From a virus, in IMG/VR virus record IMGVR_UViG_3300033146_005950, positions 18,181-82,180 of that record: DNA of 64,000 bases. The stretch is one strand, 5' to 3'. Each line of letters opens with the position of its first letter. The first letter of the stretch is position 1. The translations under genes were made by a program, and so were the position numbers. The notes under the pieces were generated by a model. It ran no database searches and was not told the origin of the DNA. It saw only the letters and a program-made list of their open reading frames with translations. Positions 2,107-64,000 of this stretch are shown here, piece by piece.

Positions 2107-2141
2107 AATCCAACAAAACAAAACAAAAGAATTTTTTTTTT

Positions 2142-3566: not shown

Positions 3567-3634
3567 TTTTCAAACCTTTTTAATATTTTACAATTACTTT
3601 ATATTATCAGAAACGAAACACCTCAGCAATTAGT

Positions 3635-4063: not shown

Positions 4064-4076
4064 TTTCTTATCCTTT

Positions 4077-4382: not shown

Positions 4383-4384
4383 TT

Positions 4385-5480: not shown

Positions 5481-5497
5481 TTGATATTAGCTAATTT

Positions 5498-5932: not shown

Positions 5933-5974
5933 AATAAGTATTTCTCCTTAAAAAGTTTACTTTTGATTTTAATA

Positions 5975-5987
5975 TATTTATTTTTAA
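5975..5987 (-). promoter_or_regulatory. Putative late promoter
   Basis: Reverse complement reads TTAAAAATAAATA, about 40 bases upstream of the 144-aa gene ending at 5932. Confidence 0.5.
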
Positions 5988-6000
5988 AAATAAGAAGCTT

Positions 6001-6013
6001 CAAAAATAAATAT
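6001..6013 (+). promoter_or_regulatory. Putative late promoter of the baseplate operon
   Basis: CAAAAATAAATAT on the + strand. If transcription starts 6-8 bases downstream, as at T4 late promoters, the ATG at 6030 would have almost no leader. This favours the ATG at 6063 as the start of the next gene. Confidence 0.55.
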
Positions 6014-6062
6014 ATGTATAAGTATTGCAATGACATTAAAAATTAAAGGTTTTGAAAATAAT

Positions 6063-8633: not shown

Positions 8634-8657
8634 AAAAGCATAGGAGAAAATTTTATT

Positions 8658-9584
8658 TTGAGTTATACAAGCATTTTTAGTTCAGATGTTAGTTACGATT
8701 CAGATGTGAACAGTTCATTATTTGATATTGCAATATACCCTACATATGTAAATGGAGAATTACAAGAAAAAGATAGAGTTTGCATTCGTGGCAAAATGGA
8801 TGCGGATAAATCTATTAATTATCAATTATCAGCAAGTTGGGAGAAGGGTTTATTAAATAGTTTAGTTTCAAATTTGACAAGTGGGGGTGTTCTAAAATCT
8901 ATTTCAGGCGACACGATGATGGCTGAGTTTGGAATACAAACAGGAAAAACTGGTTTTACAACAAGGAGAACTTTTACAGGTGCAAATAGCCCTCAATTTA
9001 CAGTTGGGATGAAAATATTCAATGACGGGACTCAAGACGGCTCAGCCGCGTTTTATAAAAAAATAAATGATTTGCAACAATTAGTAATGCCGCAAATAAC
9101 TGAAGGCGCAGACGGTTCAAAACAAACGCAAGATGCTGTTTATGAAATTTTTAAAAGTAAACAAAAGAAAATAAAAGAAAAGAAAATAAAGAAGGATAAA
9201 GAAGTAAAGACTGAAGAAGAAGCACCAATATCTGGTTTAGCAACCGCTTCTGATGCCCAATTAAAAAAAGCTGGAGTAACTAAAAGAATTGGCAATGTAA
9301 CAAAAGATAGCGGCATTGATATTACAAACGCGCCGTCTGATTTTGTATTGATTGTTGGCAATTATTTTGGAATTAATAGGGGAGTAATGGATTCTGTACA
9401 AATAAATTATTCTGTTGCAAAAAATGCTTACGGCCCGGTTTATTGCGATGTTGAGCTACAGTTCTCAATTATGTACACTCCTAAAATAACTTTATACGAT
9501 AACGGAGATCCTGCTAAAATCGATAATATATTTGTAGGTTCTAATCAAGTTGCAGATTTAATGAAGTTGGAAGGAATTGAATAA
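8658..9584 (+). CDS. Baseplate tube-cap / tube-initiator-like protein (gp48/gp54 type)
   Basis: 308 residues, with a TTG start supported by AGGAG eleven bases upstream and no early ATG. The C-terminal ~80 residues (SDFVLIVGNYFGIN..MDSVQINYS then PVYCDVELQF) resemble the tube-like end domain of T4 gp48/gp54, which caps the baseplate and starts tube polymerisation. A Lys/Glu-rich linker lies at residues ~170-200. Its position between the tape-measure-like gene and a gp53-like wedge gene supports a baseplate tube role. Whether it equals gp48 or gp54 cannot be decided. Confidence 0.55.
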   Translation: MSYTSIFSSDVSYDSDVNSSLFDIAIYPTYVNGELQEKDRVCIRGKMDADKSINYQLSASWEKGLLNSLVSNLTSGGVLKSISGDTMMAEFGIQTGKTGFTTRRTFTGANSPQFTVGMKIFNDGTQDGSAAFYKKINDLQQLVMPQITEGADGSKQTQDAVYEIFKSKQKKIKEKKIKKDKEVKTEEEAPISGLATASDAQLKKAGVTKRIGNVTKDSGIDITNAPSDFVLIVGNYFGINRGVMDSVQINYSVAKNAYGPVYCDVELQFSIMYTPKITLYDNGDPAKIDNIFVGSNQVADLMKLEGIE

Positions 9585-9931
9585 TGATAAAAAGTAAATT
9601 AAATCGCACAAATTTTTATGACGATTTTAATAATAATGGAATAGCAGAAAAAGTACTTGATTCCGATTATTATAAATTGTTTAAAATGAATTTTAAACCA
9701 ACAATTTATATAATTAAAGATGTTGATATTGCAAGGTGGGATATGATAAGTTTTAAACATTATCGTTCATATGATTTTTATTGGATTATATTAAAAGTAA
9801 ACAATATAAATGACCCTTGGAACGATATCGAACCAGGGGATGAAATTATCATTCCTGATAAAAGAGACGTTTATGATTTTTATACAGCTGTAAAAAATTC
9901 AAAAAGGGATTGTGAAAATGGAAAATGCTAG
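9584..9931 (+). CDS. Baseplate wedge protein, gp53-like (LysM-type fold)
   Basis: 115 residues. The segment from residue ~49 (ARWDMISFKHYRSYDFYW, then ILKVNNINDPWNDIEPG, then IIIP) follows the LysM-like pattern of T4 gp53 and related baseplate proteins: a short folded unit ending in a D..PG..I.IP turn. These proteins join wedges into the baseplate ring. The gene starts at the last base of the upstream stop codon (ATAATG overlap) and overlaps the next gene, indicating translational coupling. Confidence 0.7.
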   Translation: MIKSKLNRTNFYDDFNNNGIAEKVLDSDYYKLFKMNFKPTIYIIKDVDIARWDMISFKHYRSYDFYWIILKVNNINDPWNDIEPGDEIIIPDKRDVYDFYTAVKNSKRDCENGKC

Positions 9932-10121
9932 CAACCAATATGGTTTATTAGATTCAGAGTATTATGCACTAATGAAAATTAAATCACAAAGCTCATTTTT
10001 ATTTAACGATATTTTAGATACATATTATGATAGCGGGCGAAATTTAATAATTACAAAACTTATTTTAAATATTGCACAAAAATTAAATATCAAAAGCAAA
10101 CCACAGAACTTACTATCTTAA
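9918..10121 (+). CDS. Small protein in baseplate operon
   Basis: 67 residues from the ATG at 9918; a GTG at 9912 would add two, but AAAAGGGA is better spaced for the ATG. It overlaps the end of the gp53-like gene by 14 bases. It is helical, unrecognised, and without membrane segments. Position suggests a baseplate assembly factor or a small structural subunit. Confidence 0.6.
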   Translation: MENASNQYGLLDSEYYALMKIKSQSSFLFNDILDTYYDSGRNLIITKLILNIAQKLNIKSKPQNLLS

Positions 10122-10142
10122 CAGAAAATATATTTTAATAAA

Positions 10143-11387
10143 ATGAGAAATAAAACACTTACAAAATTTGAATTTGATACTGCAAAATATCAACAATTTT
10201 ATGGAACTTTATTTATAAATAATAGAGAAGTTCCCGCAAGTGATATTTATTCATTTACTGTTAGAGAGTGGATTTTACCTAATTTATTTTTACCCCGTTT
10301 AGAATTAGTATTGATTGACGGTGGAAGATTATCTGAATTAGAATTGCCAATACACGATACACAAATTAAATTAATGATTAGCAAACACGAAGAATCCGCT
10401 GAAGCAGAAGATTTATTATTTAATATTTTAGATTTTGAAATATTAAATGGGCAAAACCCAAACGACCAAAGAATTATAAAAATATCTGCATATTTAGATA
10501 TTCCTAACTTATTTTCAATCGAGAGCAAAAGTTATGACGGTACTTCATTAGATGTATTTAAACAAATAGCAAAAGAACTTAAATTAAAATATAATAAAGT
10601 AAATAATATTTCTGCGCAAGATAAAATGATTTATTATAAACTTAAACAAAATAATATAACTTTTTTCAAACACATTTTAGAGAAGTCTTATATTGGTAAA
10701 GACGATGTTTTATTTGCTTACATTACGACTGATAATTTATTAAATACATTATCATTGAAAGATGCATATTCTAAAAAACCTGTTTATAAATTAAGATATG
10801 ACATTGAATTAGCAACTGCAAATTCAAAAGATAATTTTAAACAATTATTAAAAGATAAAAGAATTAAAGAAGACGATAAATCAATTTATTATTCAAATTA
10901 TGGAATAATAAACAAGAGCGGCACATTTTTCAATAACGGCGGGTATTCTGTGTTGTCTTCAAATTATAATTTAGAAGATAATGAATATTTTGAAACAGAA
11001 GTAAATTCTTCAGAGAGTTTTTTCAACACTGATTTAAATAGTTTTAAAGACTTCGCGTCAAACACAAAATATATTTATAATGGTTTAAACATTAAAACTA
11101 ATGTTTATTCTGATTATGAAATAGCAGCATCGGTCAGACATAATATATTAAATTCATTTTTCGCAAACTCAATTGAAATTGAAATAGATTCTTATTCAAA
11201 CCCTAATATTGGAGATATGATTGACTTAATAATTCCATCAAAGTCTCAAACAACTGCAAAATTAAATAATGAACCTTTAAGTGGTAAATATATAATAATA
11301 AGTAAATTGAGAACGGCGAGCAAATTAAGCATCTTTAAAAAACGAATAATAGTTGCGAGACTTGGAACAAATGAAGGGATTTATTAA
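10143..11387 (+). CDS. Baseplate hub protein (gp27 / gpD-like)
   Basis: 414 residues. Size, position just before the spike gene and pattern match hub proteins of contractile tails. The N-terminal beta domain holds YGTLFINNREVPASDI, a middle tube-like domain includes SYDGTSLDVFKQIAKEL, and the C-terminal domain ends in a beta barrel with PNIGDMIDLIIP and GKYIIISK. The SxxxVLxxIA-type helix after a short beta segment is typical of gp27/gpD/VgrG hubs. It forms the central trimer onto which the spike docks. The ribosome binding site is weak. Confidence 0.7.
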   Translation: MRNKTLTKFEFDTAKYQQFYGTLFINNREVPASDIYSFTVREWILPNLFLPRLELVLIDGGRLSELELPIHDTQIKLMISKHEESAEAEDLLFNILDFEILNGQNPNDQRIIKISAYLDIPNLFSIESKSYDGTSLDVFKQIAKELKLKYNKVNNISAQDKMIYYKLKQNNITFFKHILEKSYIGKDDVLFAYITTDNLLNTLSLKDAYSKKPVYKLRYDIELATANSKDNFKQLLKDKRIKEDDKSIYYSNYGIINKSGTFFNNGGYSVLSSNYNLEDNEYFETEVNSSESFFNTDLNSFKDFASNTKYIYNGLNIKTNVYSDYEIAASVRHNILNSFFANSIEIEIDSYSNPNIGDMIDLIIPSKSQTTAKLNNEPLSGKYIIISKLRTASKLSIFKKRIIVARLGTNEGIY

Positions 11388-11389
11388 AA

Positions 11390-12226
11390 ATGGAAAATAT
11401 AAATGACATTATAACAGAAGATATATTTTTAGTATTAAAAAATATAGTAAATAATGTAGAATCAAATTTTGCGAAAAAAGTTTATATTGCGACCGTAGTT
11501 GATAATAAAGATCCTGATGGAGAAGGTAAAGTTCAAATAAAACCACACGGATTATTTGATGATATAAAAGAAAAAGATTTACCTTGGGCCGTTTACGAAA
11601 CTCAATATACAGATGTTGAAAATATTAAAATAACAATACCTAAAATTGGTTCAAAAGTTAAAGTTTATTTTGATAATGATGATTTATATAAACCAATTTA
11701 TAATTTAAACGTCCCAACATTTGCAAGCATTAATTCTAAAGTTAAAGGGGCAGGCTCAAATCCTGATATTTATGTTTTATATGAAAACGAACAAGGAGAC
11801 TATATTTCAATTGATACAGCAAACTCAGTTTTTACAATAAACCATAATAAAGGAACTGTTTTAACAATTGATACAGATGGTTTTGTTCATTTAACTCAAA
11901 CAAACCCAAATACAAAATTAACAGTTGGAACTTTAGATATTGATGATAAAGGTTTTAATGTAGTGAGATATGACTCGATTGGTTTAAAGAAAACAAATGT
12001 AAGTGCAAATAATGATGGGACTGTTGAAATTAAAAATGCAGGCACGGCAGGGCTTGGCTCAGGCGGTATTTCAGTTGCTGCAAATGGAATGTTATCTGTA
12101 AATGATGGTATGGCGACCCCAAACCCTTTAGGACCTTTTTGTGCAATTCCGGTTTGTCCTATTTCAGGTGGAGTGCATACAGGAGCAATGGCGGCCCCGG
12201 GATTATCCTCTCCCGGAGCAATTTAA
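11390..12226 (+). CDS. Baseplate central spike protein (gp5/gpV-like, OB fold)
   Basis: 278 residues. Residues ~27-110 form an OB-fold-like module (YIATVVDNKDPDGEGKVQIK, then LPWAVYETQY, then PKIGSKVKVYFDNDDLYKP), the fold of T4 gp5 N-domain and P2 gpV. Residues ~140-240 are repetitive beta (triple-stranded helix type). The end (GPFCAIPVCPISGGVHTGA) carries two Cys in a Pro/Gly-rich tip, possibly metal-binding. No lysozyme domain is present, consistent with the peptidase being in the upstream gene. It starts 3 bases after the hub stop, with AAGGGA upstream. Confidence 0.75.
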   Translation: MENINDIITEDIFLVLKNIVNNVESNFAKKVYIATVVDNKDPDGEGKVQIKPHGLFDDIKEKDLPWAVYETQYTDVENIKITIPKIGSKVKVYFDNDDLYKPIYNLNVPTFASINSKVKGAGSNPDIYVLYENEQGDYISIDTANSVFTINHNKGTVLTIDTDGFVHLTQTNPNTKLTVGTLDIDDKGFNVVRYDSIGLKKTNVSANNDGTVEIKNAGTAGLGSGGISVAANGMLSVNDGMATPNPLGPFCAIPVCPISGGVHTGAMAAPGLSSPGAI

Positions 12227-12233
12227 AAAAAAG

Positions 12234-13133
12234 TTAAAATAAATCTTTTATTAATAATGTGTTTATTGATTTTTCAAATTCCAATTTAATTTGTGCTTCT
12301 TTTATTAAATATTCATCATTCCAAAGACTTCTTGCTTTTTGAAATATATCTAATGTTTTTTCAAAAAATAGTTCTTTATTAACTATTTTTTCCATTGCTC
12401 GTTCATCAGATATTTTGATTAACATATTATCAAATATTGGAAAATAAATACTTAAATATTTTGTAACTATAATACTAAATACTTCAACTTTTTTCAAAAC
12501 AAACTGTTTAAGTTGCTCATCATTCATTTTATAAAAACCATTTAATCTGAAAGATTGACGGTATGCTTTCATTAAATCAATTTTAAAAGCACTCCTTAAT
12601 GATTCTTTATATAATAAATATTCTTTGCTCAATAATTCAGGTTCGTCTAAATATATGAAATTTTTTTGTAATTTTATTTTATCTTTATCAGAAATAAGAT
12701 CATTATCTGCGTTTTCATCAAATGCAGCTTTGGCTAATCGTATTTCAGAAATTTTTTCTTCTTGCAAATTTCTATACAATTTAACTAAATTATTTATAAT
12801 TTGGTCCAAAATATTTTCAGCATAGTCCAATTGCATTCCTGTAATTTGATGTTTTAATGCTAATGAATCATCTTTATATTTTGTATGAATCTCAAACAAA
12901 TATATTAATATTGAAGTATTAATTGTGATCACTTTTCCTTCAGTGACATTATCAACATTACTATTTTCAGTCGGCGCTCTTCTCTCTGTATTTTTTATTC
13001 CTTTATTTGCTTTTTCAACAATCATAAGTAAAGGATTTATACTTAAAACCGCAACTATTAATAATATTAAAAATAATGCGATTAATCCATAAACAGGGCC
13101 AAAAGCTGATACAACTTGTGCTATTCCATCCAT
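12234..13133 (-). CDS. Membrane-anchored protein of unknown function
   Basis: 299 residues with one strong N-terminal transmembrane segment at residues ~14-40 (VYGLIALFLILLIVAVLSI) and a long, charged, mostly helical remainder. No enzymatic motif is recognised. It is convergent with the spike gene (7 bases apart) and only 6 bases downstream of a second single-span protein (13140-13865) of similar design, so the two may form a complex. Roles in lysis timing, superinfection exclusion or host takeover are possible; none is shown. Confidence 0.6.
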   Translation of the reverse strand: MDGIAQVVSAFGPVYGLIALFLILLIVAVLSINPLLMIVEKANKGIKNTERRAPTENSNVDNVTEGKVITINTSILIYLFEIHTKYKDDSLALKHQITGMQLDYAENILDQIINNLVKLYRNLQEEKISEIRLAKAAFDENADNDLISDKDKIKLQKNFIYLDEPELLSKEYLLYKESLRSAFKIDLMKAYRQSFRLNGFYKMNDEQLKQFVLKKVEVFSIIVTKYLSIYFPIFDNMLIKISDERAMEKIVNKELFFEKTLDIFQKARSLWNDEYLIKEAQIKLEFEKSINTLLIKDLF

Positions 13134-13139
13134 TTTTTA

Positions 13140-13865
13140 CTATTCCCAATCGTCCTTAAGATTCATTGTATATTTTATAACACTTAACGGGTTTTTCTTA
13201 AAATCATTTTCCATTTTTTCAATAAATTCTATTGCTTTATTATAAATTAATTTTGTTTGTCCTGCTATTTGTAATGAAATAATATAGTCAGGATTTAGTT
13301 CGGGATTTTTAGGCAAACGACTTTTTATAAATTCTTTGCGCTCTTTGTATGTTATTTTAAATGAAAAATTAAATCTCGGCCAAAGCAATCTTATTTTTTG
13401 ATTTATTACTTTAGTAAATTCGTTTAATATTAATTCCGTATAATCTTCTACAGAATAATCAACGTATTCATAATTTTTTAAGCTTACAATTACAACTTCT
13501 TTAACACTTTCTTTAATAGCTCTATCTAACATTAGCTCATATAATTGAATATTTATTTGCATAATTTCAGGTGCTGCTTCGCATTTATGATTTTCAGAAA
13601 TGCAAAAAGTGTTTTTATCTAATTTATAAATTTCATTTAATTGTTCAATAAAAGAAGATAAATAAGTTCTTTTAATTGATTTAATGCAATTTTTTACAAC
13701 TTTAACTTGAGCTTCAAAAACTGAAACAAAAATATTATTTTTAATTACAATAAATAAAAGTCTTAAAATTACTTCTGAAACTCTAATGCTGCCATATACA
13801 AGCAAGAATGTAATTGAAACCATCGCCCATATTAAAACATCTGTATTATTGATTTGTTCAAACAT
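13140..13865 (-). CDS. Membrane-anchored protein of unknown function
   Basis: 241 residues with an N-terminal hydrophobic region at residues ~10-45 (LIWAMVSITFLLVYGSIRV and a second weaker stretch) followed by a soluble helical domain. It shares architecture, though no evident sequence identity, with its downstream neighbour. It lies directly after the 87-aa gene in the same operon. No catalytic motif is seen. Confidence 0.6.
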   Translation of the reverse strand: MFEQINNTDVLIWAMVSITFLLVYGSIRVSEVILRLLFIVIKNNIFVSVFEAQVKVVKNCIKSIKRTYLSSFIEQLNEIYKLDKNTFCISENHKCEAAPEIMQINIQLYELMLDRAIKESVKEVVIVSLKNYEYVDYSVEDYTELILNEFTKVINQKIRLLWPRFNFSFKITYKERKEFIKSRLPKNPELNPDYIISLQIAGQTKLIYNKAIEFIEKMENDFKKNPLSVIKYTMNLKDDWE

Positions 13866-13867
13866 TT

Positions 13868-14131
13868 TTAATAATACACCTTTTTAACATAAAGCGAATC
13901 TTCAGTTGACAATTTATCAATATTAATCGCACCAAATTTAAAATATGAAAATAGTTTATCACAACCGTCTACAAACTCAACAATAAAACCTTCTTCAGTT
14001 GAAGCAATTACAGAGTGAACTGGAAATTCATCTCCAACATTTCTCCATTTAATTGTGTCATTTGAGACTCGCCCAAATGAAATAGAACCATGCCACCCCG
14101 GTTTAATTGAATACGAATCTAAGATTTCCAT
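13868..14131 (-). CDS. Small hypothetical protein
   Basis: 87 residues, beta-rich, with an SH3-like look (IKPGWHGSISFGRVSND, then VIASTEEGFIVEFVDG). Unrecognised. It lies 3 bases after the DUF4376-like gene and 2 bases before the membrane protein gene, so it is co-transcribed with them. Confidence 0.6.
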   Translation of the reverse strand: MEILDSYSIKPGWHGSISFGRVSNDTIKWRNVGDEFPVHSVIASTEEGFIVEFVDGCDKLFSYFKFGAINIDKLSTEDSLYVKKVYY

Positions 14132-14134
14132 TTT

Positions 14135-14539
14135 TTATTCTTCTACGTTTTCCCACTCAGTGCTATCCCAAGTAATATCGAACACTTGGTCAACAGATGT
14201 GCATTTATTGATTAAATCACCTTTTTTGATATTTTTATAATACATATTAAACCCCCAATTTCTAACATCAGTTATCATTGTTGCCATTTCTTCAATCGTG
14301 CATTCAATTATTTCTTTTGTAATTGAATCTCTAACGAACGGCTGAATATCTGTATTATCTACAAAATAACCAAGAAAGCCTTGAAGACCTGAAAGAACTT
14401 GAAGCCCTCCAGCAATATAAATATTTTTACTTCCTAAAGTAAAATAATCGCCTTTCATTATTAAATTATTAAAAATATCGTCAAGCTCAGCTTTTCGTTG
14501 TGCTTTTACAGATGCTAAATTTTCTTCTTTTGTAACCAT
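14135..14539 (-). CDS. Putative tail fibre assembly protein (DUF4376-like)
   Basis: 134 residues. The N-terminal helix LASVKAQRKAELDDIFNNL, followed by a GDYFTLGS beta hairpin and a later helix ending in W, matches the DUF4376-type domain common at the end of tail fibre assembly proteins. Placement immediately downstream of fibre genes (14558-18475) supports a chaperone or fibre-attachment role. GGAGAG lies 12 bases before the ATG. Confidence 0.5.
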   Translation of the reverse strand: MVTKEENLASVKAQRKAELDDIFNNLIMKGDYFTLGSKNIYIAGGLQVLSGLQGFLGYFVDNTDIQPFVRDSITKEIIECTIEEMATMITDVRNWGFNMYYKNIKKGDLINKCTSVDQVFDITWDSTEWENVEE

Positions 14540-14557
14540 ATTATTTTTATTACTCTC

Positions 14558-15133
14558 CTAAGAAATTATAATGATTCTTCTGTTTATAGAACTGTATATA
14601 TTTATTTTTATATTTTTGAATGTATCATAACAGTTCCATTGACTTGACGGATAAACAAAACCAATATTGCCTGTTGTGTAAGTAGAATCTGATGCAAGAA
14701 CAGTATAAGCAGAACCATTAAATGAAACACTAAAATCATCACCCACTCTTTTTATTTTAATTTTAAATGAAGTTGAGTTTCCGACAAATACAGCAGTACT
14801 TCCAAGTTTTGTCCCACTGTCACCTTTACCACTTGTGTTATTTTTATAAAGAGTGAATTTTGAATTTGAGCCGTCAATTGTCCATAACAATACATAGTTT
14901 TGGTCTATATTTAATGTGTTTAAACAAAATGATAAACCACCTTTATCATCAGTTCCCCAAGCTTCAGTTTCAACATCAACTTCAAAATCAAAATCACCAA
15001 TTGAATTATTAAACTCATTTTTTGTTAAAAAACTACCACCATCTAATACTGACATACTGTCTGGAGATATTCCGTTTATTTCATCGCCGCTCCAAGTTCT
15101 GTCACCATATTCTGTCCATCCTGATACTGACAT
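14558..15133 (-). CDS. Concanavalin/LamG-like adhesin or fibre tip
   Basis: 191 residues with a jelly-roll pattern: alternating beta strands such as FDFEVDVETEAWG, GGLSFCLNTL, YVLLWTIDGSNSKFTLYK, FKIKIKRVGDDFSVSFNG and GNIGFVY. This is typical of carbohydrate-binding LamG/DUF1080-type domains. It lies 3 bases after the 1112-aa fibre gene, so it is probably a fibre tip, receptor binder or separate adhesin. There is no signal peptide, consistent with a virion protein. Confidence 0.6.
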   Translation of the reverse strand: MSVSGWTEYGDRTWSGDEINGISPDSMSVLDGGSFLTKNEFNNSIGDFDFEVDVETEAWGTDDKGGLSFCLNTLNIDQNYVLLWTIDGSNSKFTLYKNNTSGKGDSGTKLGSTAVFVGNSTSFKIKIKRVGDDFSVSFNGSAYTVLASDSTYTTGNIGFVYPSSQWNCYDTFKNIKINIYSSINRRIIIIS

Positions 15134-15136
15134 AAT

Positions 15137-18100
15137 TTAATTAATCTCGTATTCAATTGTAATATGAATATATGAAACAGTACCAGAGACAGCCGTAACT
15201 TCTAACCAAACATATTCATTTTGATTTATTGCAATTCCACTTTTTGTTACTTCAGCCCCGTTTAAACCTGATGAAACTAATTGCCCATTTACAATTGTGT
15301 TTATTGCAGTCCCGACTGAAGTTCCAGATTTAATATTAAAAGTAACTGAAGAACCGTCTTTAACAACGGCTTGAACTGTATTTACTTTTAACGCTTTTGT
15401 TGTGAACCAAATGGGTATTAAATCTGTATCAACTGGAGCAGGTAAATAAATTGCTTTACTTAATAAATTTTTAGATTTTTCTAATTTATTATTTAATTCT
15501 GTATTTAAATCTGTTTGGTTCGTTATTATTCCGGTTATCCCACCCCAAGCAATGTTAGAAGATGCCCCGGGTGAAAGTACTTTTTTAATTGTAATTGTGT
15601 TTGCTCCTGAAAGCGCTTGTATTTGAGCTGTACCACGGGTGCGCATTAAATGAACTTCAATAACATCATTTACTTGTAAATTTTTAATAATTGATGAAGA
15701 AGCGGAAGACCCAAAATTTGCCTGTCTCATATATAATTCGCCATAAGTACCCGAAACATCATTTGAATTTATTACTAATTTAGATGCAGCTTCAGATCTT
15801 ACATTTCCACTGTTTCCTTTTATTGACACATTATAAGTAATTTCATATTGCCCCGCTTCTTGAATTTCAATCGTTCCCGCTGAAATTACTGAATACGCAG
15901 AACAAGTTGCAGATACGGTATTAAATGGAACTTTTTGCCAAGTCCCGTCTAATGCTAAATCAGTATTATTATATAAACTTAAAACTTTAGGGTCTTCTTT
16001 AGAATCATCAACATATTTTTTAGTCGCGGGTTCATAATCAGATGCCGGAGTAAACGAAGCTGTATTATCTAATTCTAATACATTATTTTTATTTGCCTTT
16101 AAATTTAATGCAGTTTGTGTATCATTTGAAATTGGTTTATTTAAATCTGAAGTATTATCAACATTGCCCAAACCAACATCAGATTTATTAACATTATGAG
16201 GATTATTTGTGTTTGAAATATGACTTTGAATATTTGTGTTTTTAGGTTCATAATCAGAATCGTGATTATGATTTCCTTCTGCAACTTCTCCACTATTATT
16301 TCCAAAATTTTTATTGAAAGCGGTGTTTTCTGTGAAGTCATCTTTCTTTCCAGCTAATTCATTTTGTAAATCTGTTTGATTAGTAATATCCCCGATTATA
16401 TCACCCCAAGTAATATTCTCAGCTGTGCCGCCTGAAATTGAAGGAATTAATATTTTTTTAATTGTAATTGAAGTTCCGTTCCCAGATGCTTTTACTGTAT
16501 TACTTCCATCTACCACTTTTGCTCTTATTCTTAACATATCACTGTCATCTAAGTCAAAAATATAGCTGTATGATGCAACTGCTCCATATTGAGTTTTCTT
16601 TATAAATAAAGTATTTTCAGTACCCGGGATATTAGTGTAATTTTTTTGTAGCATTATTTTTACAGAAGTATCAACAGTCCCCGCTGAGGCAACTAAATCA
16701 ATATGAAAATTTACTTCATATTGTCCTGCATTATCTAAAGTTATTTCACCGTTGCTATTTGTGTAACCACCACCTGTAATATCAATAACATTAAATGGTA
16801 CTGTTTGATAGTTCATAGATGAAATTGTAAAATCATTAGTGTTCCTTGCTGCAAAAACATCCGGGTCTTTTAATTTATCGTCAACATATTTTTTAGTTGC
16901 AGGTTCATAATCAGCCGCCGGAACAAACGAAGTTGTGTTATTTAATTCTAATACATTATTTTTATCTGCTTTATTATTTAAAAGATTTGCGACTGCGTTG
17001 CTAACAGGTTTATTTAAATCTGAAGTATTATCAACATTGCCCAAACCAACGTCAGATTTATTAACATTATGAGGATTATTTGTGTTTGAAATATGACTTT
17101 GAATATTTGAATTAGCAGGTTCGTAAACTCCATTATGATTATGATTTCCTTCTGCAACTGTTGAAGCAGCCGTACCAAAGTCTTTATTAAAAGCACTGTT
17201 TTCGGCAAAGTCATCTTTCTTTCCATCTAATTCATTTTGTAAATCGGTCTGATTAGAAATGTTTCCAACAATTGTACCCCAAGTTGTATTACCATTGCTT
17301 TCAATAACACCTGCTGCAACGATCTTTTTAAGATTTAACGAAACACCTTTTACAGTCGTATTAATTGAAGAAGTACCAACCGTTCTACTTGCGATTACCT
17401 TTAATACATCATTTTCGTTTAAATTTAATATTGCGGTTGCAGTACCGTGTGTACCATAATTTTTTAGTCTACAATATATTGTTGATTGAGTTCCATTCAC
17501 ATCTGAGCCATTTAATTGTAATTTAGTTACGACAGTGCTTCTTGAACTTCCACTGGCTACTTCAAAATCAGCGTGATAAATTATTTCATATTGTCCATCT
17601 TTTAATATTGTAACTTCACCATTATTATTATGAGAATAAGAATCATCTATTATATCAACCGTGTTTAACGGGATTGTTTGAAAACTACTTGAGATAGAAA
17701 ATGCATTATTGTTATGCGCAAAATATACAGACGGCTCATCAACAGAATCATCAACATATTTTTTAGTCGCAGGTTCATAATCAGCATCTGGAGTAAATGA
17801 AGTTGTATTATCTAATTCTAATACATTTGTTTTGTCTGCTTTTAAATTTAACGCAGTTTGTGTATCATTTGAAATTGGTTTATCTAAGTCTGAAGTATTA
17901 TTTACTGCTCCTAAACCTATTTGGCTTTTTGTCACTACGTGCGGGTTTGTTTGATTGCTAATATGACTTTGAATATTTGAATTGACAGGTTCATAAACAG
18001 TATCGTGATTATGGTTCCCCATTGAAACAGTGTTAGAAGTAGTTCCAAAGTCTTTGTTGAAGGCTGTTTTTTCTGTGAAGTCATCTTTCTTTCCATCTAA

Positions 18101-18475
18101 TTCATTTTGTAAATCTGTCTGATTGGTAATGTTGCCTGATATATTGCCCCAAGCAACTTCTTCGCTCAAATCAATTTCACCATCACCATCTTCATCATAA
18201 ACCGAACCGCCAACATTTGATTTATGATAAAAATTAAATGTGTTTTGTATTATTGCAATATAAACATCTGCACTTGTAGATGTTGGGTTATATGTGTTTA
18301 GTTCATTAGTAATTAAAGAAACATCTTTATTACCACTAAAATTTATTAAAATGTCATCTGCAAATTTTCTTGTGTATAATAATCTATTTATATTTGTAGT
18401 TGAACCCGAAGTATAAAATACTCCATCTAAATAAAGGTTTGAACCTGAAATATAAATTTGATCTACTCTTTCCAT
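15137..18475 (-). CDS. Large modular tail fibre protein
   Basis: 1112 residues. It holds a three-fold repeat of ~270 residues. Each unit contains a WG.I.G.ITNQTDLQ segment, GKKDDF, a GNHNHD..YEP segment, NIQSHISN..NPH, then GLGNVDNTSDLNKP, a YEPATKKYVDD segment and a jelly-roll domain of ~130 residues (FN..D......G.I....AGQYEI). The NPHxV...GLGNVDNTSD pattern is typical of T4-like fibre shafts. The last ~110 residues form a different C-terminal domain. A 101-bp stretch (17745-17845) is identical to one in the neighbouring fibre gene (20104-20204), showing recombinational exchange. AAAGG precedes the start. Confidence 0.85.
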   Translation of the reverse strand: MERVDQIYISGSNLYLDGVFYTSGSTTNINRLLYTRKFADDILINFSGNKDVSLITNELNTYNPTSTSADVYIAIIQNTFNFYHKSNVGGSVYDEDGDGEIDLSEEVAWGNISGNITNQTDLQNELDGKKDDFTEKTAFNKDFGTTSNTVSMGNHNHDTVYEPVNSNIQSHISNQTNPHVVTKSQIGLGAVNNTSDLDKPISNDTQTALNLKADKTNVLELDNTTSFTPDADYEPATKKYVDDSVDEPSVYFAHNNNAFSISSSFQTIPLNTVDIIDDSYSHNNNGEVTILKDGQYEIIYHADFEVASGSSRSTVVTKLQLNGSDVNGTQSTIYCRLKNYGTHGTATAILNLNENDVLKVIASRTVGTSSINTTVKGVSLNLKKIVAAGVIESNGNTTWGTIVGNISNQTDLQNELDGKKDDFAENSAFNKDFGTAASTVAEGNHNHNGVYEPANSNIQSHISNTNNPHNVNKSDVGLGNVDNTSDLNKPVSNAVANLLNNKADKNNVLELNNTTSFVPAADYEPATKKYVDDKLKDPDVFAARNTNDFTISSMNYQTVPFNVIDITGGGYTNSNGEITLDNAGQYEVNFHIDLVASAGTVDTSVKIMLQKNYTNIPGTENTLFIKKTQYGAVASYSYIFDLDDSDMLRIRAKVVDGSNTVKASGNGTSITIKKILIPSISGGTAENITWGDIIGDITNQTDLQNELAGKKDDFTENTAFNKNFGNNSGEVAEGNHNHDSDYEPKNTNIQSHISNTNNPHNVNKSDVGLGNVDNTSDLNKPISNDTQTALNLKANKNNVLELDNTASFTPASDYEPATKKYVDDSKEDPKVLSLYNNTDLALDGTWQKVPFNTVSATCSAYSVISAGTIEIQEAGQYEITYNVSIKGNSGNVRSEAASKLVINSNDVSGTYGELYMRQANFGSSASSSIIKNLQVNDVIEVHLMRTRGTAQIQALSGANTITIKKVLSPGASSNIAWGGITGIITNQTDLNTELNNKLEKSKNLLSKAIYLPAPVDTDLIPIWFTTKALKVNTVQAVVKDGSSVTFNIKSGTSVGTAINTIVNGQLVSSGLNGAEVTKSGIAINQNEYVWLEVTAVSGTVSYIHITIEYEIN

Positions 18476-53754: not shown

Positions 53755-54303
53755 TTATTTTTCATTAGGAATTATAATATCACATTTTAAATTCCAAAGT
53801 CTTTTAATATGAACCCAACTTTTAACGTACCAAATTTTATTTTTCTCCGGCATCCATTCAAGCGGCCCTTTACTACCTTTTTGTCTATTCAATGATGCTT
53901 TACAGGCGACAAGATGGTTTTCGTCTTTTAAATAATTTGCATATTCTTTTTTCTTTCTTTTGCTCCATCTTTTACCACCACTTTCAAATGCATTTTTCAA
54001 TGGGACTAAATGATCTATATCTAATTTTCTTGGGTCATAAATTGTATCACCTGAATAAGGGCAAACCCACGTACCTTTAATTATTTTAAGATCACCTTTT
54101 AAAATTAAACAAATTAAAGTGTCAGAAACATTTTCATCATACAATACTTTTTGTCTTGTATTTAAACTAATATTTACACCGTCTTTAACCGTGACCCAAT
54201 GAGACCAATTTTTCCTATTGTATTTTTCAATTGTTTCAGCGTTTAATTCAATATTATAAAATGAATTAAATGTAATGAGTATAATTATGAACAATTTTAA
54301 CAT
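53755..54303 (-). CDS. Secreted HNH-family endonuclease
   Basis: 182 residues from the ATG at 54303, with TTGGAG upstream. Residues 1-22 form a signal peptide (MLKLFIIILITFNSFYNIEL, then NA). The nuclease core has DIDHLVPLKNAFESGG (DHxxPL, metal and catalytic His), then YANYLKDENHLVACKASLNR and QKGSKGPLEWMP, as in the DUF1524/GmrSD C-terminal-like HNH group of periplasmic or secreted nucleases. It would act in the periplasm, perhaps degrading incoming DNA of competitors or released DNA. No late promoter is visible. It looks bacterial in origin. Confidence 0.75.
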   Translation of the reverse strand: MLKLFIIILITFNSFYNIELNAETIEKYNRKNWSHWVTVKDGVNISLNTRQKVLYDENVSDTLICLILKGDLKIIKGTWVCPYSGDTIYDPRKLDIDHLVPLKNAFESGGKRWSKRKKKEYANYLKDENHLVACKASLNRQKGSKGPLEWMPEKNKIWYVKSWVHIKRLWNLKCDIIIPNEK

Positions 54304-54327
54304 ATATTTCTCCAATTTAAATATATT

Positions 54328-54391: not shown

Positions 54392-54736
54392 TTATTTAGC
54401 GTCGCGTTTTTTTGCAATTTTAGCAGCTCTTTTACCATTAGCAGATTTTGCATATTTTTTTGCTGATTTTTTGATTTGAGCTTTATGAGTTCTTGCATAT
54501 TTTTTTGCTTCTTTAGCTTTTTTCTTTTCATAAGCAGATAAAGACATTCCCGCTTTTTTTGCAGCTTCTTTCTTCTTCAACAAAGCTTCTTTCTTTTTCT
54601 TAGCAAGTTGGGCTTTAGTTTTTGCAACGGCTTCCTCATCAAGATCTTCGTTTTTATCGTCGTCCTTAACATTTTCTTCAGCAAAATCTTTTAACTCAGG
54701 CAAATAACTTGTTGCCTCTTCAATTAAATTTTTCAT
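54392..54736 (-). CDS. Lys/Ala-rich probable internal head protein
   Basis: About 114 residues from the ATG at 54736, well spaced from AGGAG; an ATG five codons earlier overlaps that site. The N-terminus MKNLIEEATSYLPEL resembles T4 capsid-targeting sequences with a (L/I)xE protease site (LIE|E). An acidic stretch then a long Lys/Ala-rich histone-like tail (AKKKKEALLKKKEAAKKAGM, KKYAKSANGKRAAKIAKK) follow. A DNA-binding protein packaged in the head and cleaved by the prohead protease is the best guess. A late promoter lies at 54776-54790. Confidence 0.6.
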   Translation of the reverse strand: MKNLIEEATSYLPELKDFAEENVKDDDKNEDLDEEAVAKTKAQLAKKKKEALLKKKEAAKKAGMSLSAYEKKKAKEAKKYARTHKAQIKKSAKKYAKSANGKRAAKIAKKRDAK

Positions 54737-54775
54737 TAAATTACTCCTCATATGAATATAAAAATACTATTTTAA

Positions 54776-54824: not shown

Positions 54825-55970
54825 ATGGAGAATACATATAAAATAAACACATTTAATAAATATAAGATTAATACATCAGTTGGCTTCAGACATTTTGAAG
54901 GTATTCAAAAATTATATAAAGAATGCTTAAAAATATCATTTGCTAATTTAGATAAAAATATCATTATAACAACAGACCAATTATTATGGAGTTTTAATAA
55001 ATGGGTAAAAGCTTCAGACTTAAAAGAAGGTGACTTAGTTGAAAATAATAAAGTAGGCTCAGTTGCAATAATAAAAATAGAAAATATTGGAGTTCAACCT
55101 GTTTTTGATATTATAAATTCAGATGTACAACATTTTACTACAGACGGGTTTACTGCGCATAATTGTAGTTTTATTGGTTCTTCTAAAACATTGATAAGAG
55201 CTGATTTATTAGAAGGTTTAAGAGCTGAAGACCCGATTGAAGTAAGACTAAATTATAAATTAAAAATATTTACTGCTCCAATTGAAAATCATATTTATAT
55301 TTTAGGAGCGGATCCGTCAGAAGGAACTGGTAATGATAATTCTGTTATTCAAGTTTTAGATATTACAAATCCTAAAAAAATATTACAGGTCGCGACATTT
55401 TCAGATAATAAAACAGACCCTTATAAATTCTCAGATATTATTGTAGGATTATCTGAAACTTATAATAATGCTGAAATTGTCGTTGAAAGCAATTCTGTTG
55501 GAATTTTAGTAACAAATAGAATATGGAGAGATTTAGATTGCGACAGTTTAGTAAATATTTCTGAAAATGGAAAAGGATTAGGAATAAAAGCAACAAAGAA
55601 AACAAAAAAATTAGCAAATATGATTTTTAAACGTTTTGTTGAAAATAATTGGTTTTTAATAGTAAATAAAGACACAATTTCAGAATTAGGTAAATATGAA
55701 GAGCAAACAAACGGCAGTTATAAAGTACCAGAGCCCGACCACGATGACCAAGTCACTTCATTGATTTATATAATGTATTATTTAGAATCTGATTATAATG
55801 AGCATTCTGAAGTTTATGAATCGACAGAAATTGATAAAGAATTAAAAGAAGAGCTGAGTTTTGTGCCGTTATCAATATCAAGCTCAGATATTGAAGATGA
55901 CGAGAATAATGATTATGGGTATAATTATGACGGTTTTGATAACGGTCTTGATTATTTAAATGTTTTTTAA
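54825..55970 (+). CDS. Large terminase, nuclease half, with N-terminal atypical split-intein C-fragment
   Basis: 381 residues. Residues 1-113 are an intein C-part: GFRHFEGIQKL, an IIITTDQLLW block, VKASDLKEGDLVE, VFDIINSDVQHFTTDGFT and the splice end AHN followed by Cys114. It begins after intein block N1, as in the known AceL-TerL atypical split intein (very short N-fragment). From Cys114 (CSFIGSSKTL) the sequence is the T4 gp17-type C-terminal domain. Its nuclease motifs are LGADPSEGTGNDNSV, EIVVESNSVG and PDHDDQVTSL. The ATPase half is not in this window, so a separate gene with the ATPase plus a short N-intein is expected. No good ribosome binding site is seen. Confidence 0.88.
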   Translation: MENTYKINTFNKYKINTSVGFRHFEGIQKLYKECLKISFANLDKNIIITTDQLLWSFNKWVKASDLKEGDLVENNKVGSVAIIKIENIGVQPVFDIINSDVQHFTTDGFTAHNCSFIGSSKTLIRADLLEGLRAEDPIEVRLNYKLKIFTAPIENHIYILGADPSEGTGNDNSVIQVLDITNPKKILQVATFSDNKTDPYKFSDIIVGLSETYNNAEIVVESNSVGILVTNRIWRDLDCDSLVNISENGKGLGIKATKKTKKLANMIFKRFVENNWFLIVNKDTISELGKYEEQTNGSYKVPEPDHDDQVTSLIYIMYYLESDYNEHSEVYESTEIDKELKEELSFVPLSISSSDIEDDENNDYGYNYDGFDNGLDYLNVF

Positions 55971-56097: not shown

Positions 56098-58353
56098 ATG
56101 GCTAATAATGTACCTGGTTCATTTAAAAAAGAATTAGATAAAAGCTTAACAATTTCGGCAACGGATACAGTCGCCGGTGCAATTGTAATTAAAAGCCCAA
56201 AGGGTAGAATAAATACTCCAATTACAGTAAGTAATGAGGCAGAATTTATTGAAGAATTTGGAAAACCAGTTTTTAGTGGTAAAAGTAAAGTTCCAGAATA
56301 TGGTTATGGAATGTATGCAGCACTCAAGTATTTATCAATTTCAGATAAAATTACTATTGTAAGAGTTCCTTCAGTGACTGTTTCAGGGACTGATATTACT
56401 GAGGCTGACGAATATGCAGTTGGTGGATTAAAATATGAAAGTAATGCACTATCACCCGTTTATTATACAAATGAAGAAGGAGTCGCACCTTATAAAGAAG
56501 ATGACGCAACAAGTTATTCTTCACCAGTAGTTCCAAACACACCAACCCGTATTATTGATTTAGATAATGCGACCGCAATTGCTGATTCTAAATTTTCAAT
56601 TTTCTTTTCTGCTCCTGGCGCAGAAGGTAATAATATTGCATACTCAATTGAATTTTTTGGTGGTAACTCTGATTGGAAATATAATTATGACCCAGATTCT
56701 AATGTTGATACAGTTATAAGTAAAATTAAAGATGGCACAGCAACAACGGATGATATTACTTCTATTATTGCAACTCAGGTTTTTAAGCTTTCTTTTTATA
56801 GCAAAAACTCTTCAGAGAATTGGCCTACTAATTTTACAAATGGTTCTATCAAACCTGATAAAGTTATTTATGCTTCACTAAATAATATTTTAGATGCAAA
56901 TAAAGAATCTCTTTATATTGGCGATAAAATTGAAATGATGAACTCATTATATTTTATTGAGAATGAAACTCTTACGAATCAAGAATTATTAGATATTGTT
57001 AAACGTGGTTTTGATGATACGGTTTTAATTGAAGGACAAACTGATTTTTCTGATGCTGAAGATTTTATGCCAATTGATGATTCATATTCATATGTTTCTT
57101 CAATGGTAGATGATGAATATTATTATATTGCAAAACCAAAAACAGAAGCTGCTGACGCAAGTAATACTTCATCAATTGACTCTTCTTCAGTTGAACGTTT
57201 AATCGCAAGCTCAAATATGGAAGTTCGTTATAAAGCACAATCTGATGGAAGTGAAGGTTTTTATATTCGTCCGGTTGGCTCAACAACAGAAGGAACGACA
57301 AGATATGTTGAAGACACAAATGGCAATCTTGCAAATGAATCTGACGCAAATGATATTTTATTATATGCAGACGGAACACCAATTAAATTACCTTTTAAAG
57401 AATTAGTAATTGAGTCAAAACCTGATTCTGAACAACCTGGAGAATTTGTTTTTATTGCTCTTAAAGGTGGTAATAATTCAGAAACAGGAACTTCTGATAT
57501 AAATAACATTCAAGGTTGGAGTTATTTAGCAAATAGAGAATCTGTTGATGCAAATATAATTTTAGTACCTTCTCCAAAAACAACAGTAAAACAGCACGTT
57601 GCATCACACGTTATTGATGTTAGAAAAGATTGTGTAATGGAAGCTCAGTCAGGTTCAATCGATAATTTAGATGCAGATTCAATTATTGCTGCAGAAAGTT
57701 ATGGTTATTCAAGTCCTTCATTTGTTTCTCTAACAGCAGGTTTTACTAAAGTTAAAGATTCTTATAATGATAAATTTGTATGGCTTCCTAATTCAATATT
57801 TGCTGCATATACAGATGCTAAAACTGCGATTGAGGCAAATGTTTGGGATTCTCCTGCAGGTAACCCTCGTGGTATTATTTCAGGTATTGAACAATTAGTT
57901 ACATTTAGTGAAGGCGATTTATCAAAACTTTTTGCTGCAAATATAAATGCTGCGAAAATGTTTGCTGGTGTTGGTTCAGTAATTTGGGAAAGCTTAACGG
58001 CTCTTCGACAACATACAGCATTAAGAAGCAAAAGTGTTCGTTTCAATATAAACAATATTGAAAATACTTTAGAAGAATACACAAATTCATTAGTTCATAA
58101 TATTAATAATACTGAGACAGAAAGAACGAGAATCGAACTTAAGTTTGATAAATTTCTTTCTGGTATTAAAAATGCAGGCGGTTTGTATGATTATAAAGTT
58201 CAATGTGATGATGAAAATAATACACCTGAGGTTATTGATAATGAAGAGTTAGTAATTTGGGTATTTTTAAAACCTGTACGGAATGTTAAATTTATTAAAT
58301 TAACTTATGTTATTACTGATTCTGGAGCAAGTTTCGATGAAATTCAGGTTTAA
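56098..58353 (+). CDS. Tail sheath protein (gp18-like)
   Basis: 751 residues (T4 gp18 is 659). It forms the contractile sheath. The opening VPGSFKKELDKSLTISATDT, SPKGRINTPITVSNEAEFIE, EFG and YGMYAALKYLSI are characteristic. The C-terminal conserved domain includes WLPNSIFAAYTDAKT, a SPAGNPRGIISGIEQLV-type segment, GVGSVIWESLTALRQHTALR and RNVKFIKLTYVITDSGASFD. A long variable insert lies at residues ~110-480. AAGGAGA precedes the start and a strong terminator follows. Confidence 0.95.
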   Translation: MANNVPGSFKKELDKSLTISATDTVAGAIVIKSPKGRINTPITVSNEAEFIEEFGKPVFSGKSKVPEYGYGMYAALKYLSISDKITIVRVPSVTVSGTDITEADEYAVGGLKYESNALSPVYYTNEEGVAPYKEDDATSYSSPVVPNTPTRIIDLDNATAIADSKFSIFFSAPGAEGNNIAYSIEFFGGNSDWKYNYDPDSNVDTVISKIKDGTATTDDITSIIATQVFKLSFYSKNSSENWPTNFTNGSIKPDKVIYASLNNILDANKESLYIGDKIEMMNSLYFIENETLTNQELLDIVKRGFDDTVLIEGQTDFSDAEDFMPIDDSYSYVSSMVDDEYYYIAKPKTEAADASNTSSIDSSSVERLIASSNMEVRYKAQSDGSEGFYIRPVGSTTEGTTRYVEDTNGNLANESDANDILLYADGTPIKLPFKELVIESKPDSEQPGEFVFIALKGGNNSETGTSDINNIQGWSYLANRESVDANIILVPSPKTTVKQHVASHVIDVRKDCVMEAQSGSIDNLDADSIIAAESYGYSSPSFVSLTAGFTKVKDSYNDKFVWLPNSIFAAYTDAKTAIEANVWDSPAGNPRGIISGIEQLVTFSEGDLSKLFAANINAAKMFAGVGSVIWESLTALRQHTALRSKSVRFNINNIENTLEEYTNSLVHNINNTETERTRIELKFDKFLSGIKNAGGLYDYKVQCDDENNTPEVIDNEELVIWVFLKPVRNVKFIKLTYVITDSGASFDEIQV

Positions 58354-58515: not shown

Positions 58516-59922
58516 ATGCCCGACAAAATTATGTTTAACTCAATTTATTATAATAATAGGTCGAACACAATACATTTATGGGAAACTGTGAATGATAAAT
58601 TAATAAAAAGCAAGTACAAAGACTATCCATATACATTTTATATAAAATCAAAGTCAAAAACAAAATATAAAGATATTTATGGAAATTATATGGAGAAAAG
58701 GCAAGTAAGTTCAAGAAAAGAAGCCCCAAACATTCCACCTATGAATTTAGCTGAAGCAGATCTTCAACCTGAAGTAAAGTTTTTGCACGATAGATATGAA
58801 AATGTAAAATTAACTCCTGAGTATAAAAATTTTTCAGTATTATATTATGATATTGAAACTGAGTTCGATGGTTCATTACAAGACCAATACGGGTACCCAA
58901 TAAATTCAATATCCGCATACTTTAGCAAAAGTAAAAATTTTTATGTATTTGGAAATAAAGAAATTTCAAAGCCATTAAATAAAGATTTGTATTCTGAAAA
59001 TATTGAAATAAATAATTTAACATATTTTTATATTAAAGATGAAAAAGATATGATTGAAAGATTTATCTCTATTTCTAAGAAAGAAAATACACAAGCAATA
59101 ACAGGTTGGAACACAACATTTTTTGATAATAAGTATGTGATGGAAAGATTGAACCGTTTGGGATCTGATAAATCATTTTCTCCACTTAATAATAAATTTG
59201 ATAAAAATAGAAATGGAGATTATGTTTTTCCATTAATCACTGATTTAGATTATATGATCTTGTATAAAAATGTATTTATGAAACATATAAATTTAGATAA
59301 TTATAAATTAAACTCAGTTGCTGAACATACATTAGGCAAGGGAAAAGTAAAGTATGATGGGCAACTGAAAAATTTATGGATAAACGATTGGGATAAATTT
59401 ATTCATTATAATATTTTTGATACATTATTAGTTGTTGAAATGGAAACAAAATTAAAATTTATTGACCAAGTCTTGATGAAATTATCTGAGTCAATAATGC
59501 CTTATAAAACAATTTATTCAACAATTGCAGACCATTTAGGGATGGTCTTAAAATTAATTCATAAAGATAATGTTGTATTAAATAATCGACAAGAAATTAA
59601 TACAAATTCCGTAGATGAATTTGGTAACAAAGCTTTAGATTTACCCGGTGGGTTTACATATGCAAAAAAAGGAATTCATTCTTATTTAAGTAGTTTTGAT
59701 TTTGAGTCTCTATATCCTTCAATAATTCGCAAATATAATATTGGGGTAACAACATTAATAAAAAATCCTCAAAAAGATAATTTTATTAGATTAACGGTAA
59801 AAAATGGAAAAAGCATAGATATTCGTTATGGTACAGAAATTGAAATAAAAAGAGAAAATAAAATAATTAAAATAAAAGTTGAAGATATTAAAAAAACTGA
59901 CCTAATTTTAATAGGAGATTAA
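58516..59922 (+). CDS. Family B DNA polymerase, N-terminal half, fractured after motif A
   Basis: 468 residues versus ~900 for T4 gp43. The 3'-5' exonuclease is complete: Exo I YYDIETEFDG (~114-123), Exo II TGWNTTFFDN, Exo III HYNIFDTLLV. Palm motif A is present (FDFESLYPSIIRKYN, ~394-408). After it, only ~55 residues remain (FIRLTVKNGKSIDIRYGTEI, then KIKVEDIKKTDLILIGD). This tail resembles the second half of an intein N-fragment but lacks the initiating Cys/Ser and blocks before it. Motifs B and C are absent, so a second gene elsewhere must supply them. AAAGGAG precedes the ATG. Confidence 0.88.
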   Translation: MPDKIMFNSIYYNNRSNTIHLWETVNDKLIKSKYKDYPYTFYIKSKSKTKYKDIYGNYMEKRQVSSRKEAPNIPPMNLAEADLQPEVKFLHDRYENVKLTPEYKNFSVLYYDIETEFDGSLQDQYGYPINSISAYFSKSKNFYVFGNKEISKPLNKDLYSENIEINNLTYFYIKDEKDMIERFISISKKENTQAITGWNTTFFDNKYVMERLNRLGSDKSFSPLNNKFDKNRNGDYVFPLITDLDYMILYKNVFMKHINLDNYKLNSVAEHTLGKGKVKYDGQLKNLWINDWDKFIHYNIFDTLLVVEMETKLKFIDQVLMKLSESIMPYKTIYSTIADHLGMVLKLIHKDNVVLNNRQEINTNSVDEFGNKALDLPGGFTYAKKGIHSYLSSFDFESLYPSIIRKYNIGVTTLIKNPQKDNFIRLTVKNGKSIDIRYGTEIEIKRENKIIKIKVEDIKKTDLILIGD

Positions 59923-63140: not shown

Positions 63141-64000
63141 TTGAGAAAATCTTTTACTGATTATTTAAAAGAAAATAAAAAGAAGAAAAACATTTTTTCA
63201 GTTGTTGAAGAAAGCGTAGATATGGAATTTGTTGAAGAAGCGGCGTCTATAAATGCAAATACTGAAAAACAAGCAAACTTAATCGCAAAATTAATTGGCA
63301 AACGTTTGGGCGCCGAAGTATTTAGAATGCCCGGAGTACAAATGTTTTCAAACGGCAGAGGCAAATTTGGCGGGTTTTTATATTTTTATGGAGACACTGC
63401 AGCATTCAGATTGAATTTATTAAAAGGTTCAAAAAACATTTCATCTTTTGATTCCCTCGATGTTTGGGCTGACGGCGGAAATACTTCAATAAATAAACCG
63501 GATTATTCTTTAATATTCGACCAAATAAATATTAATATGCAGATCCCATTGATTGTAAACTTTATGAAAAAGACTCCGCAATTTGGAAAAGAAGTTTATA
63601 TTGATAATAAAAAATTCCATCAAGAAAGCGTTGATTATGAATTAATGGACGAATCTTTAATTGATTATGATTTAGTTGAAGAAGCAAAAGTTCAATATGA
63701 TGGACAAACATTCAAAAATAAAAAAGAAGCAATAGTTTATATGAGTCAAGATTTATCTATGACTGCTGAAGAAATTGTTGCAACTGGTATATCTTCAGTT
63801 AAAATGATAAATTATCATTTAAAGAGCATTGGCGCTGCAGGAACAATTTCAGTCGCAAAACCAGTCAAATCAAAAATAATTGAAGAACCAATAAAACAAC
63901 AGATTCCTAAATACGCAAATGTAGATGAATTGTTTGAAGATATGGAAACATTAACAGGAATGGTGATAGACGGGACGCAGAATAGCCTCATGATTGTAGG
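63141..64000 (+). CDS. Large protein, 5' part only (cut by window end); possible AAA+ ATPase
   Basis: TTG start with AAAGAGGT upstream; the gene continues past the window. The first ~40 residues (RKSFTDYLKENKKKKNIFSV, VEES, then VEEA) resemble capsid-targeting/protease-site sequences. Residues ~45-155 form an unknown alpha/beta domain with GKFGGFLYFYGDTAAFRL. Residues ~190-225 have a helix-turn-helix look (SMTAEEIVATGISSVKMINY). The last visible residues (GTQNSLMIVG) look like the strand leading into a Walker A loop, so an ATPase domain probably follows. Direction and context link it to the NTase/ligase locus. Confidence 0.6.
   Translation, partial: MRKSFTDYLKENKKKKNIFSVVEESVDMEFVEEAASINANTEKQANLIAKLIGKRLGAEVFRMPGVQMFSNGRGKFGGFLYFYGDTAAFRLNLLKGSKNISSFDSLDVWADGGNTSINKPDYSLIFDQININMQIPLIVNFMKKTPQFGKEVYIDNKKFHQESVDYELMDESLIDYDLVEEAKVQYDGQTFKNKKEAIVYMSQDLSMTAEEIVATGISSVKMINYHLKSIGAAGTISVAKPVKSKIIEEPIKQQIPKYANVDELFEDMETLTGMVIDGTQNSLMIV

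What the first reader, a model, noticed from the sequence alone, without database searches (positions are those of the whole stretch)
54825..55970. Large terminase is fractured, with an atypical C-terminal split intein fused to its nuclease half
The frame starts with 113 residues of intein C-part (missing only the block N1 region), ends the intein with AHN and Cys+1, then continues as the gp17-type nuclease domain. This is the layout of the AceL-TerL atypical split inteins, where the N-intein is about 25 residues. The ATPase half must be elsewhere, so the packaging motor would depend on protein trans-splicing.
Basis: partly seen in the sequence, partly recalled or inferred. Interest (0 to 1): 0.85.

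Follow-up and report, generated by a model that had tools for sequence, protein, structure and literature searches.

The report
Split packaging motor with half intein
This phage encodes only the DNA-cutting half of its packaging motor as one gene, headed by half of a self-splicing protein element; the motor probably has to be assembled by joining two separate proteins, a known but rarely described arrangement that here also lacks a catalytic histidine almost all its relatives keep.

Summary
ORF 54825-55970 (+) is a 113-residue C-intein ending in HN, then Cys+1 and a T4 gp17-type nuclease with its acidic catalytic residues. The C-intein matches the consensus atypical split intein CatC by sequence (E 7e-7; family profile 1.4e-23) and by predicted fold.

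The ATPase half is not on the 82-kb record, which is a fragment. In relatives the expected half exists: of 89 TerL ATPase genes with an intein Cys1 at this site, 79 stop 28-76 residues later. At least 13 viral contigs carry both halves, often about 46-60 kb apart. Isolated Vibrio phages VP-1 and 1.244.A have both halves and no intact terminase. The same record also has two complete split-intein genes, NrdJ and UvsX. Trans-splicing is therefore the best explanation, though the N-half and splicing itself are unproven for this phage.

The unexpected feature is the block B (N3) catalytic histidine: His in 39 of 41 aligned C-inteins, Gln here and in the only close relative (69% identical). Such inteins are known but rare.

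Verdict: a new variant of the known AceL/GOS-TerL class.

The parts
54825..55970 (+). TerL C-half gene: C-intein fused to gp17-type nuclease, 381 aa
54825..55163 (+). Atypical C-intein (113 aa), ends His112-Asn113
   Evidence: CatC match E 6.6e-7, profile E 1.4e-23, Hint-fold match; H112 and N113 invariant in 41 homologues
54969..54980 (+). Block B (N3) motif T-T-D-Q: Gln52 replaces the catalytic His
   Evidence: His in 39/41 aligned C-inteins, Gln only in window and L053
55164..55166 (+). Cys+1, first residue of the C-extein (CSFIGSSKTLIR)
   Evidence: invariant in 41/41; aligns to the ATPase/nuclease linker of T4 gp17
55242..55778 (+). gp17-type RNase H-fold nuclease domain with D163, E221, D308
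   Evidence: residues invariant
54392..54751 (-). Lys-rich ORF transcribed away from TerL-C, so TerL-C is not the distal part of an upstream operon; synteny marker
   Evidence: same order and strand in L213:2605-2982
56098..58353 (+). Tail sheath gene (gp18 type) directly after TerL-C, the T4 gp17-gp18 order
   Evidence: phages with annotated gp17-gp18 order

Best explanation
This is the C-terminal half of a T4-like large terminase that was fractured at the ATPase-nuclease linker by an atypical split intein. The ATPase half, encoded elsewhere in the phage genome, would end in a roughly 25-40 residue N-intein starting with Cys or Ser. The two intein parts associate and fold into one Hint domain. 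The acyl shift, transesterification to Cys+1, Asn113 cyclisation and S-N shift then join ATPase and nuclease into one motor protein. Shown: the C-intein, its splice residues, the intact nuclease, the insertion site, and the partner halves in relatives. Inferred: this phage's own N-half and the splicing reaction. Gln52 would have to stand in for the usual block B His, or the first step is compensated by extein or other intein residues.
For: C-intein homology and fold. H112, N113, C114 and the nuclease residues D163, E221, D308 are invariant across 41 sequences. 65 of 84 pattern matches in IMG/VR are separate C-half genes at the same site. Of 89 ATPase genes with an intein Cys1 there, 79 end 28-76 aa later. 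At least 13 contigs carry both halves, seven of them about 46-60 kb apart, which explains why the partner need not be adjacent. Vibrio phages VP-1 and 1.244.A each have exactly one ATPase and one nuclease domain, in separate genes with intein ends. The same record holds complete split-intein pairs in NrdJ and UvsX. The layout is conserved in an independent contig. No stops, and third-position divergence (0.48) exceeds first and second (0.30, 0.32) in the C-intein.
Against: No ATPase half on the 82-kb record or on the 15-kb contig of the close relative. Block B His is Gln. The C-intein evolves faster than the nuclease (52% vs 76% identity; rough dN/dS 0.42 vs 0.14, dS near saturation). No experimental splicing data.
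Confidence: 0.78

Rival explanations
1. The halves are made but not spliced: the C-intein is a decayed or structural remnant, and ATPase and nuclease act as separate, non-covalently assembled subunits.
For: Catalytic block B His replaced by Gln in both lineage members; C-intein more divergent than nuclease. Split but functional phage enzymes without splicing are known (a split ribonucleotide reductase, cited in PMC10448857).
Against: His112, Asn113 and Cys+1 are retained, and the C-intein shows purifying selection and no stops in two diverged phages. Inteins naturally lacking or not needing the block B His can splice (PMC6333167, PMC10189870).
Confidence: 0.15
2. The gene is a pseudogene or homing-related leftover, and an intact TerL sits elsewhere in the unsequenced part.
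For: Record incomplete; ATPase half not seen.
Against: Nuclease catalytic residues intact and under constraint; gene in the canonical place before the sheath gene; relatives and the isolated Vibrio phages have only one nuclease domain, in the split gene.
Confidence: 0.05
3. Assembly chimera that joined an unrelated intein to a terminase fragment.
For: Metagenomic record.
Against: Identical arrangement and flanking genes in an independent contig at 69% protein identity.
Confidence: 0.01

Closest known systems
AceL-TerL / GOS-TerL atypical split inteins and their consensus Cat (PDB 6dsl)
   Same: C-intein of about 104 residues lacking only N1, in a phage terminase; HN end with Cys+1; direct sequence and fold match. 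Short N-inteins (25, 37 and 30 aa in PMC11766414) agree with the 28-40 aa tails in relatives.
   Different: Block B His (SDNH in CatC) is Gln in TTDQ; N-half not on the record.
PolB16 OarG atypical split intein (PMC10189870)
   Same: Atypical N-proximal split; works without the N3 His.
   Different: Ser1/Ser+1, inserted in DNA polymerase, uses another His. Here Cys+1 in terminase; residue 1 unknown.
Tko CDC21-1-type inteins that naturally lack block B His (PMC6333167)
   Same: Loss of the block B His with retained splicing.
   Different: Contiguous archaeal inteins in another host protein.
Fractured genes with split inteins (Dassa et al. 2009, cited in PMC10448857)
   Same: Essential replication or packaging genes broken into two ORFs by split inteins; NrdJ and UvsX here fit this, UvsX with an endonuclease-like ORF between the halves.
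   Different: TerL halves are not adjacent here.

Membership tests
Atypical TerL split inteins (AceL/GOS/Cat) | C-intein of about 100-115 aa lacking only the N1 region | tested here: met
   113 aa aligned to CatC 9-114
Atypical TerL split inteins (AceL/GOS/Cat) | Sequence and fold homology to the family | tested here: met
   hmmsearch 6dsl_B E 1.4e-23; Foldseek E 2e-5
Atypical TerL split inteins (AceL/GOS/Cat) | Inserted in a phage large terminase, here at the ATPase-nuclease boundary | tested here: met
   Cys+1 aligns to the T4 gp17 linker before the nuclease; same site in 65 C-half genes. That AceL uses exactly this site is from memory.
Atypical TerL split inteins (AceL/GOS/Cat) | C-terminal His-Asn followed by Cys+1 | tested here: met
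Atypical TerL split inteins (AceL/GOS/Cat) | Short N-intein (25-37 aa) on the ATPase half | tested here: inconclusive
   Not on this fragment; present in relatives, 28-40 aa typical
Atypical TerL split inteins (AceL/GOS/Cat) | Block B (N3) catalytic His (a conserved feature rather than a defining one) | tested here: not met
   Gln52 in window and L053; His in 39/41
Atypical TerL split inteins (AceL/GOS/Cat) | Protein trans-splicing activity | not testable with these tools
   needs experiment
T4 gp17-type terminase nuclease | RNase H fold with acidic catalytic triad | tested here: met
   D163, E221, D308 invariant; gp17 fold match E 2e-17
Fractured gene (two half genes, each with a split-intein half) | Both halves present in one genome | tested here: inconclusive
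   Only the C-half is on the record; both halves in at least 13 relative contigs

The most novel reading that the evidence does not exclude
A natural trans-splicing TerL intein with Cys+1 that works with Gln in place of the block B His, joining two terminase halves encoded far apart, so that motor assembly depends on a distinct first-step catalysis.
Probability: 0.4. Interest if true: 0.6.

Novelty: new variant of a known kind. Interest (0 to 1): 0.5.

Why it matters
Terminase is essential, so every infectious particle of such phages would depend on trans-splicing. The survey suggests this is common rather than a curiosity: dozens of uncultured phages, including contigs above 400 kb, and at least two isolated Vibrio phages carry it. 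The isolated phages make it testable whether splicing limits or times DNA packaging. The His-to-Gln intein is a natural test of how the first splicing step can work without its usual catalyst, and could give a new orthogonal atypical split intein for protein labelling.

Tried and rejected
(1) ATPase half on the record: PF03237 and a 20-member N-half profile found nothing. (2) N-half of this lineage in IMG/VR: lineage-specific protein and DNA patterns found only the L053 contig, which is a fragment. Pairing a loose N-half to this phage by sample or neighbours gave nothing. (3) Chimera: rejected by synteny. (4) HNH gene 53755-54315 as the cognate homing endonuclease: unlikely; it starts with a signal-peptide-like stretch (by eye) and has a GmrSD_C/HNH match just under the curated cut-off, so it looks like a secreted nuclease. 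(5) DNA polymerase N-half tail as a usable N-intein: no Cys1/Ser1 block at the extein junction and only a weak profile match (hhalign E 0.11); left unexplained. (6) genome-contig scan gave split TerL genes but none of this lineage.

Full report
WHAT IS THERE. The window is positions 18181-82180 of an 82,180-base virus record that ends inside a gene on the right, so it is a fragment. ORF 54825-55970 (+) encodes 381 residues. Residues 1-113 match CatC, the engineered consensus of the atypical TerL split inteins (6dsl_B), with E 6.6e-7. Residues 111-317 match T4 gp17 and RB49 gp17 nuclease (5e-20 to 2e-16) and PF17289 (7e-7). A profile of 41 homologues raises these to 1.4e-23 for CatC and 1e-64 for gp17, and also finds gp41-1 and VidaL inteins. 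An AlphaFold2 model (pLDDT 80) shows a beta-rich Hint part and an RNase H nuclease; Foldseek returns T4 gp17 (2e-17) and CatC, gp41-1, NpuDnaB and VidaL inteins (2e-5 to 5e-5).

RESIDUES. Across 41 aligned C-halves, His112, Asn113, Cys114 (Cys+1) and the nuclease residues Asp163, Glu221 and Asp308 are invariant. Block B (N3), normally T/S-x-x-H, is T-T-D-Q here. His is present in 39 of 41; Gln only in the window and in L053, the single close relative found. That relative is 69% identical, with the same gene order: HNH gene and Lys-rich ORF on the minus strand, then TerL-C, sheath, DNA polymerase N-half, UvsY. The C-intein is 52% identical between the two, the nuclease 76%. Rough NG86 values are dN/dS 0.42 and 0.14, with dS near saturation, so they show constraint but not its exact strength.

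THE MISSING HALF. Neither PF03237 nor a 20-member N-half profile matches the record or the L053 contig. The gene directly upstream runs the other way, so TerL-C cannot be the distal part of an operon with its N-half.

THE FAMILY IN OTHER PHAGES. A DNA pattern for H-N-C-x-F-x-G-x-x-x-T-L-I found 84 stretches in IMG/VR. 65 are separate C-half genes with a C-intein, 10 have a long upstream ORF (most of them contiguous ATPase-intein-nuclease genes), 6 are cut by contig ends, and 3 are intact terminases matching by chance. A second pattern at the N-junction gave 89 ATPase genes with Cys1; 79 stop 28-76 residues later (mostly 30-38) and 10 are contiguous or longer. At least 13 contigs carry both halves. 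In seven of them (some near-identical) the halves lie about 46-60 kb apart, by comparing ATPase and nuclease positions. One N-half has Ser1 (L113, contig of L061), the residue reported for GOS-TerL (PMC11766414).

ISOLATED PHAGES. Vibrio phages VP-1 and 1.244.A have an ATPase gene whose N-intein runs into a GIY-YIG endonuclease domain (PF01541 E 3e-6) and a separate C-intein-nuclease gene. Each record has exactly one PF03237 and one PF17289 match, in different genes. VP-1 is deposited as a complete genome, 1.244.A as a partial one of 159,885 bases. They therefore show no intact TerL.

OTHER SPLIT INTEINS IN THIS RECORD. Coordinates are in L002 (record 1-18400). NrdJ: N-half 4422-6059, C-half 3196-4341; the joined extein reads ...LAPTG/TISYIADTSSGIEP. 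UvsX: N-half 15398-16366, C-half 13057-13707, with an endonuclease-like ORF between (13814-15385, Pfam DUF7487 match). The curated intein models TIGR01445 and TIGR01443 hit both pairs. The phage thus carries other complete split-intein pairs.

MECHANISM. Best reading: protein trans-splicing of an ATPase half (off the record) with this nuclease half. Shown by sequence: C-intein, splice residues, nuclease, insertion site, family-wide partner halves. Inferred: the partner in this phage and the reaction. Block B His normally assists the first acyl shift. A few natural inteins lack it and compensate (PMC6333167), and PolB16 does not need it (PMC10189870). Gln52 could donate a hydrogen bond in its place, or the step may be slow or rescued by the extein; this is untested. 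The main rival is non-covalent assembly without splicing.

COMPARISON. The element meets the architecture, homology, insertion and C-terminal residue criteria of the AceL/GOS-TerL class; it departs at block B; the N-half criterion is open. I therefore call it a new variant of a known kind. The literature library held no description of widespread TerL splitting in these phages, but it holds only part of the literature (two key papers on fractured genes and on Cat were not held), so priority is not claimed.

Noticed in passing
L053:8383-9264 and 9311-10393 (window homologue 63141-63998, cut by the record end): A P-loop gene split at Walker A (GGTGK): the N-part ends with only 12 intein-like residues (CVYEDTKITVEM, stop), and the next ORF begins with a roughly 140-aa C-intein ending HHN/T. 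Shorter than the 15-aa N-intein called the shortest characterised (PMC10189870); seen on one contig only.
   Followed up: partly
window 58516-59922 (+), L053:3639-5039: DNA polymerase B N-half ends in a conserved ~45-aa tail resembling the middle of a Hint domain, without a Cys1/Ser1 block; the C-half is not on the record. Intact homologues read through here. Unexplained.
   Followed up: partly
L014, L015 (Vibrio phages VP-1 and 1.244.A): TerL N-intein continues into a GIY-YIG endonuclease; VP-1 also has a contiguous intein at Walker A.
   Followed up: partly
L013 (Vibrio phage vB_VmeM-32), L018 (Campylobacter phage CP21): TerL carries inteins or C-inteins at Walker A and Walker B sites, so TerL has at least three intein sites.
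   Followed up: no
L123-L126 (contigs G003-G006): Contigs of 291-424 kb carry a second TerL-like ATPase gene; where read, it has no intein tail, and each contig has only one nuclease-domain match.
   Followed up: no
window 53755-54315 (-), L213:1992-2519 (-): HNH/GmrSD_C-type nuclease with a signal-peptide-like start, conserved upstream of TerL-C.
   Followed up: no
L002:13057-16366 and 3196-6059 (record 1-18400): Complete split-intein pairs in UvsX (with an endonuclease-like ORF between) and NrdJ.
   Followed up: yes
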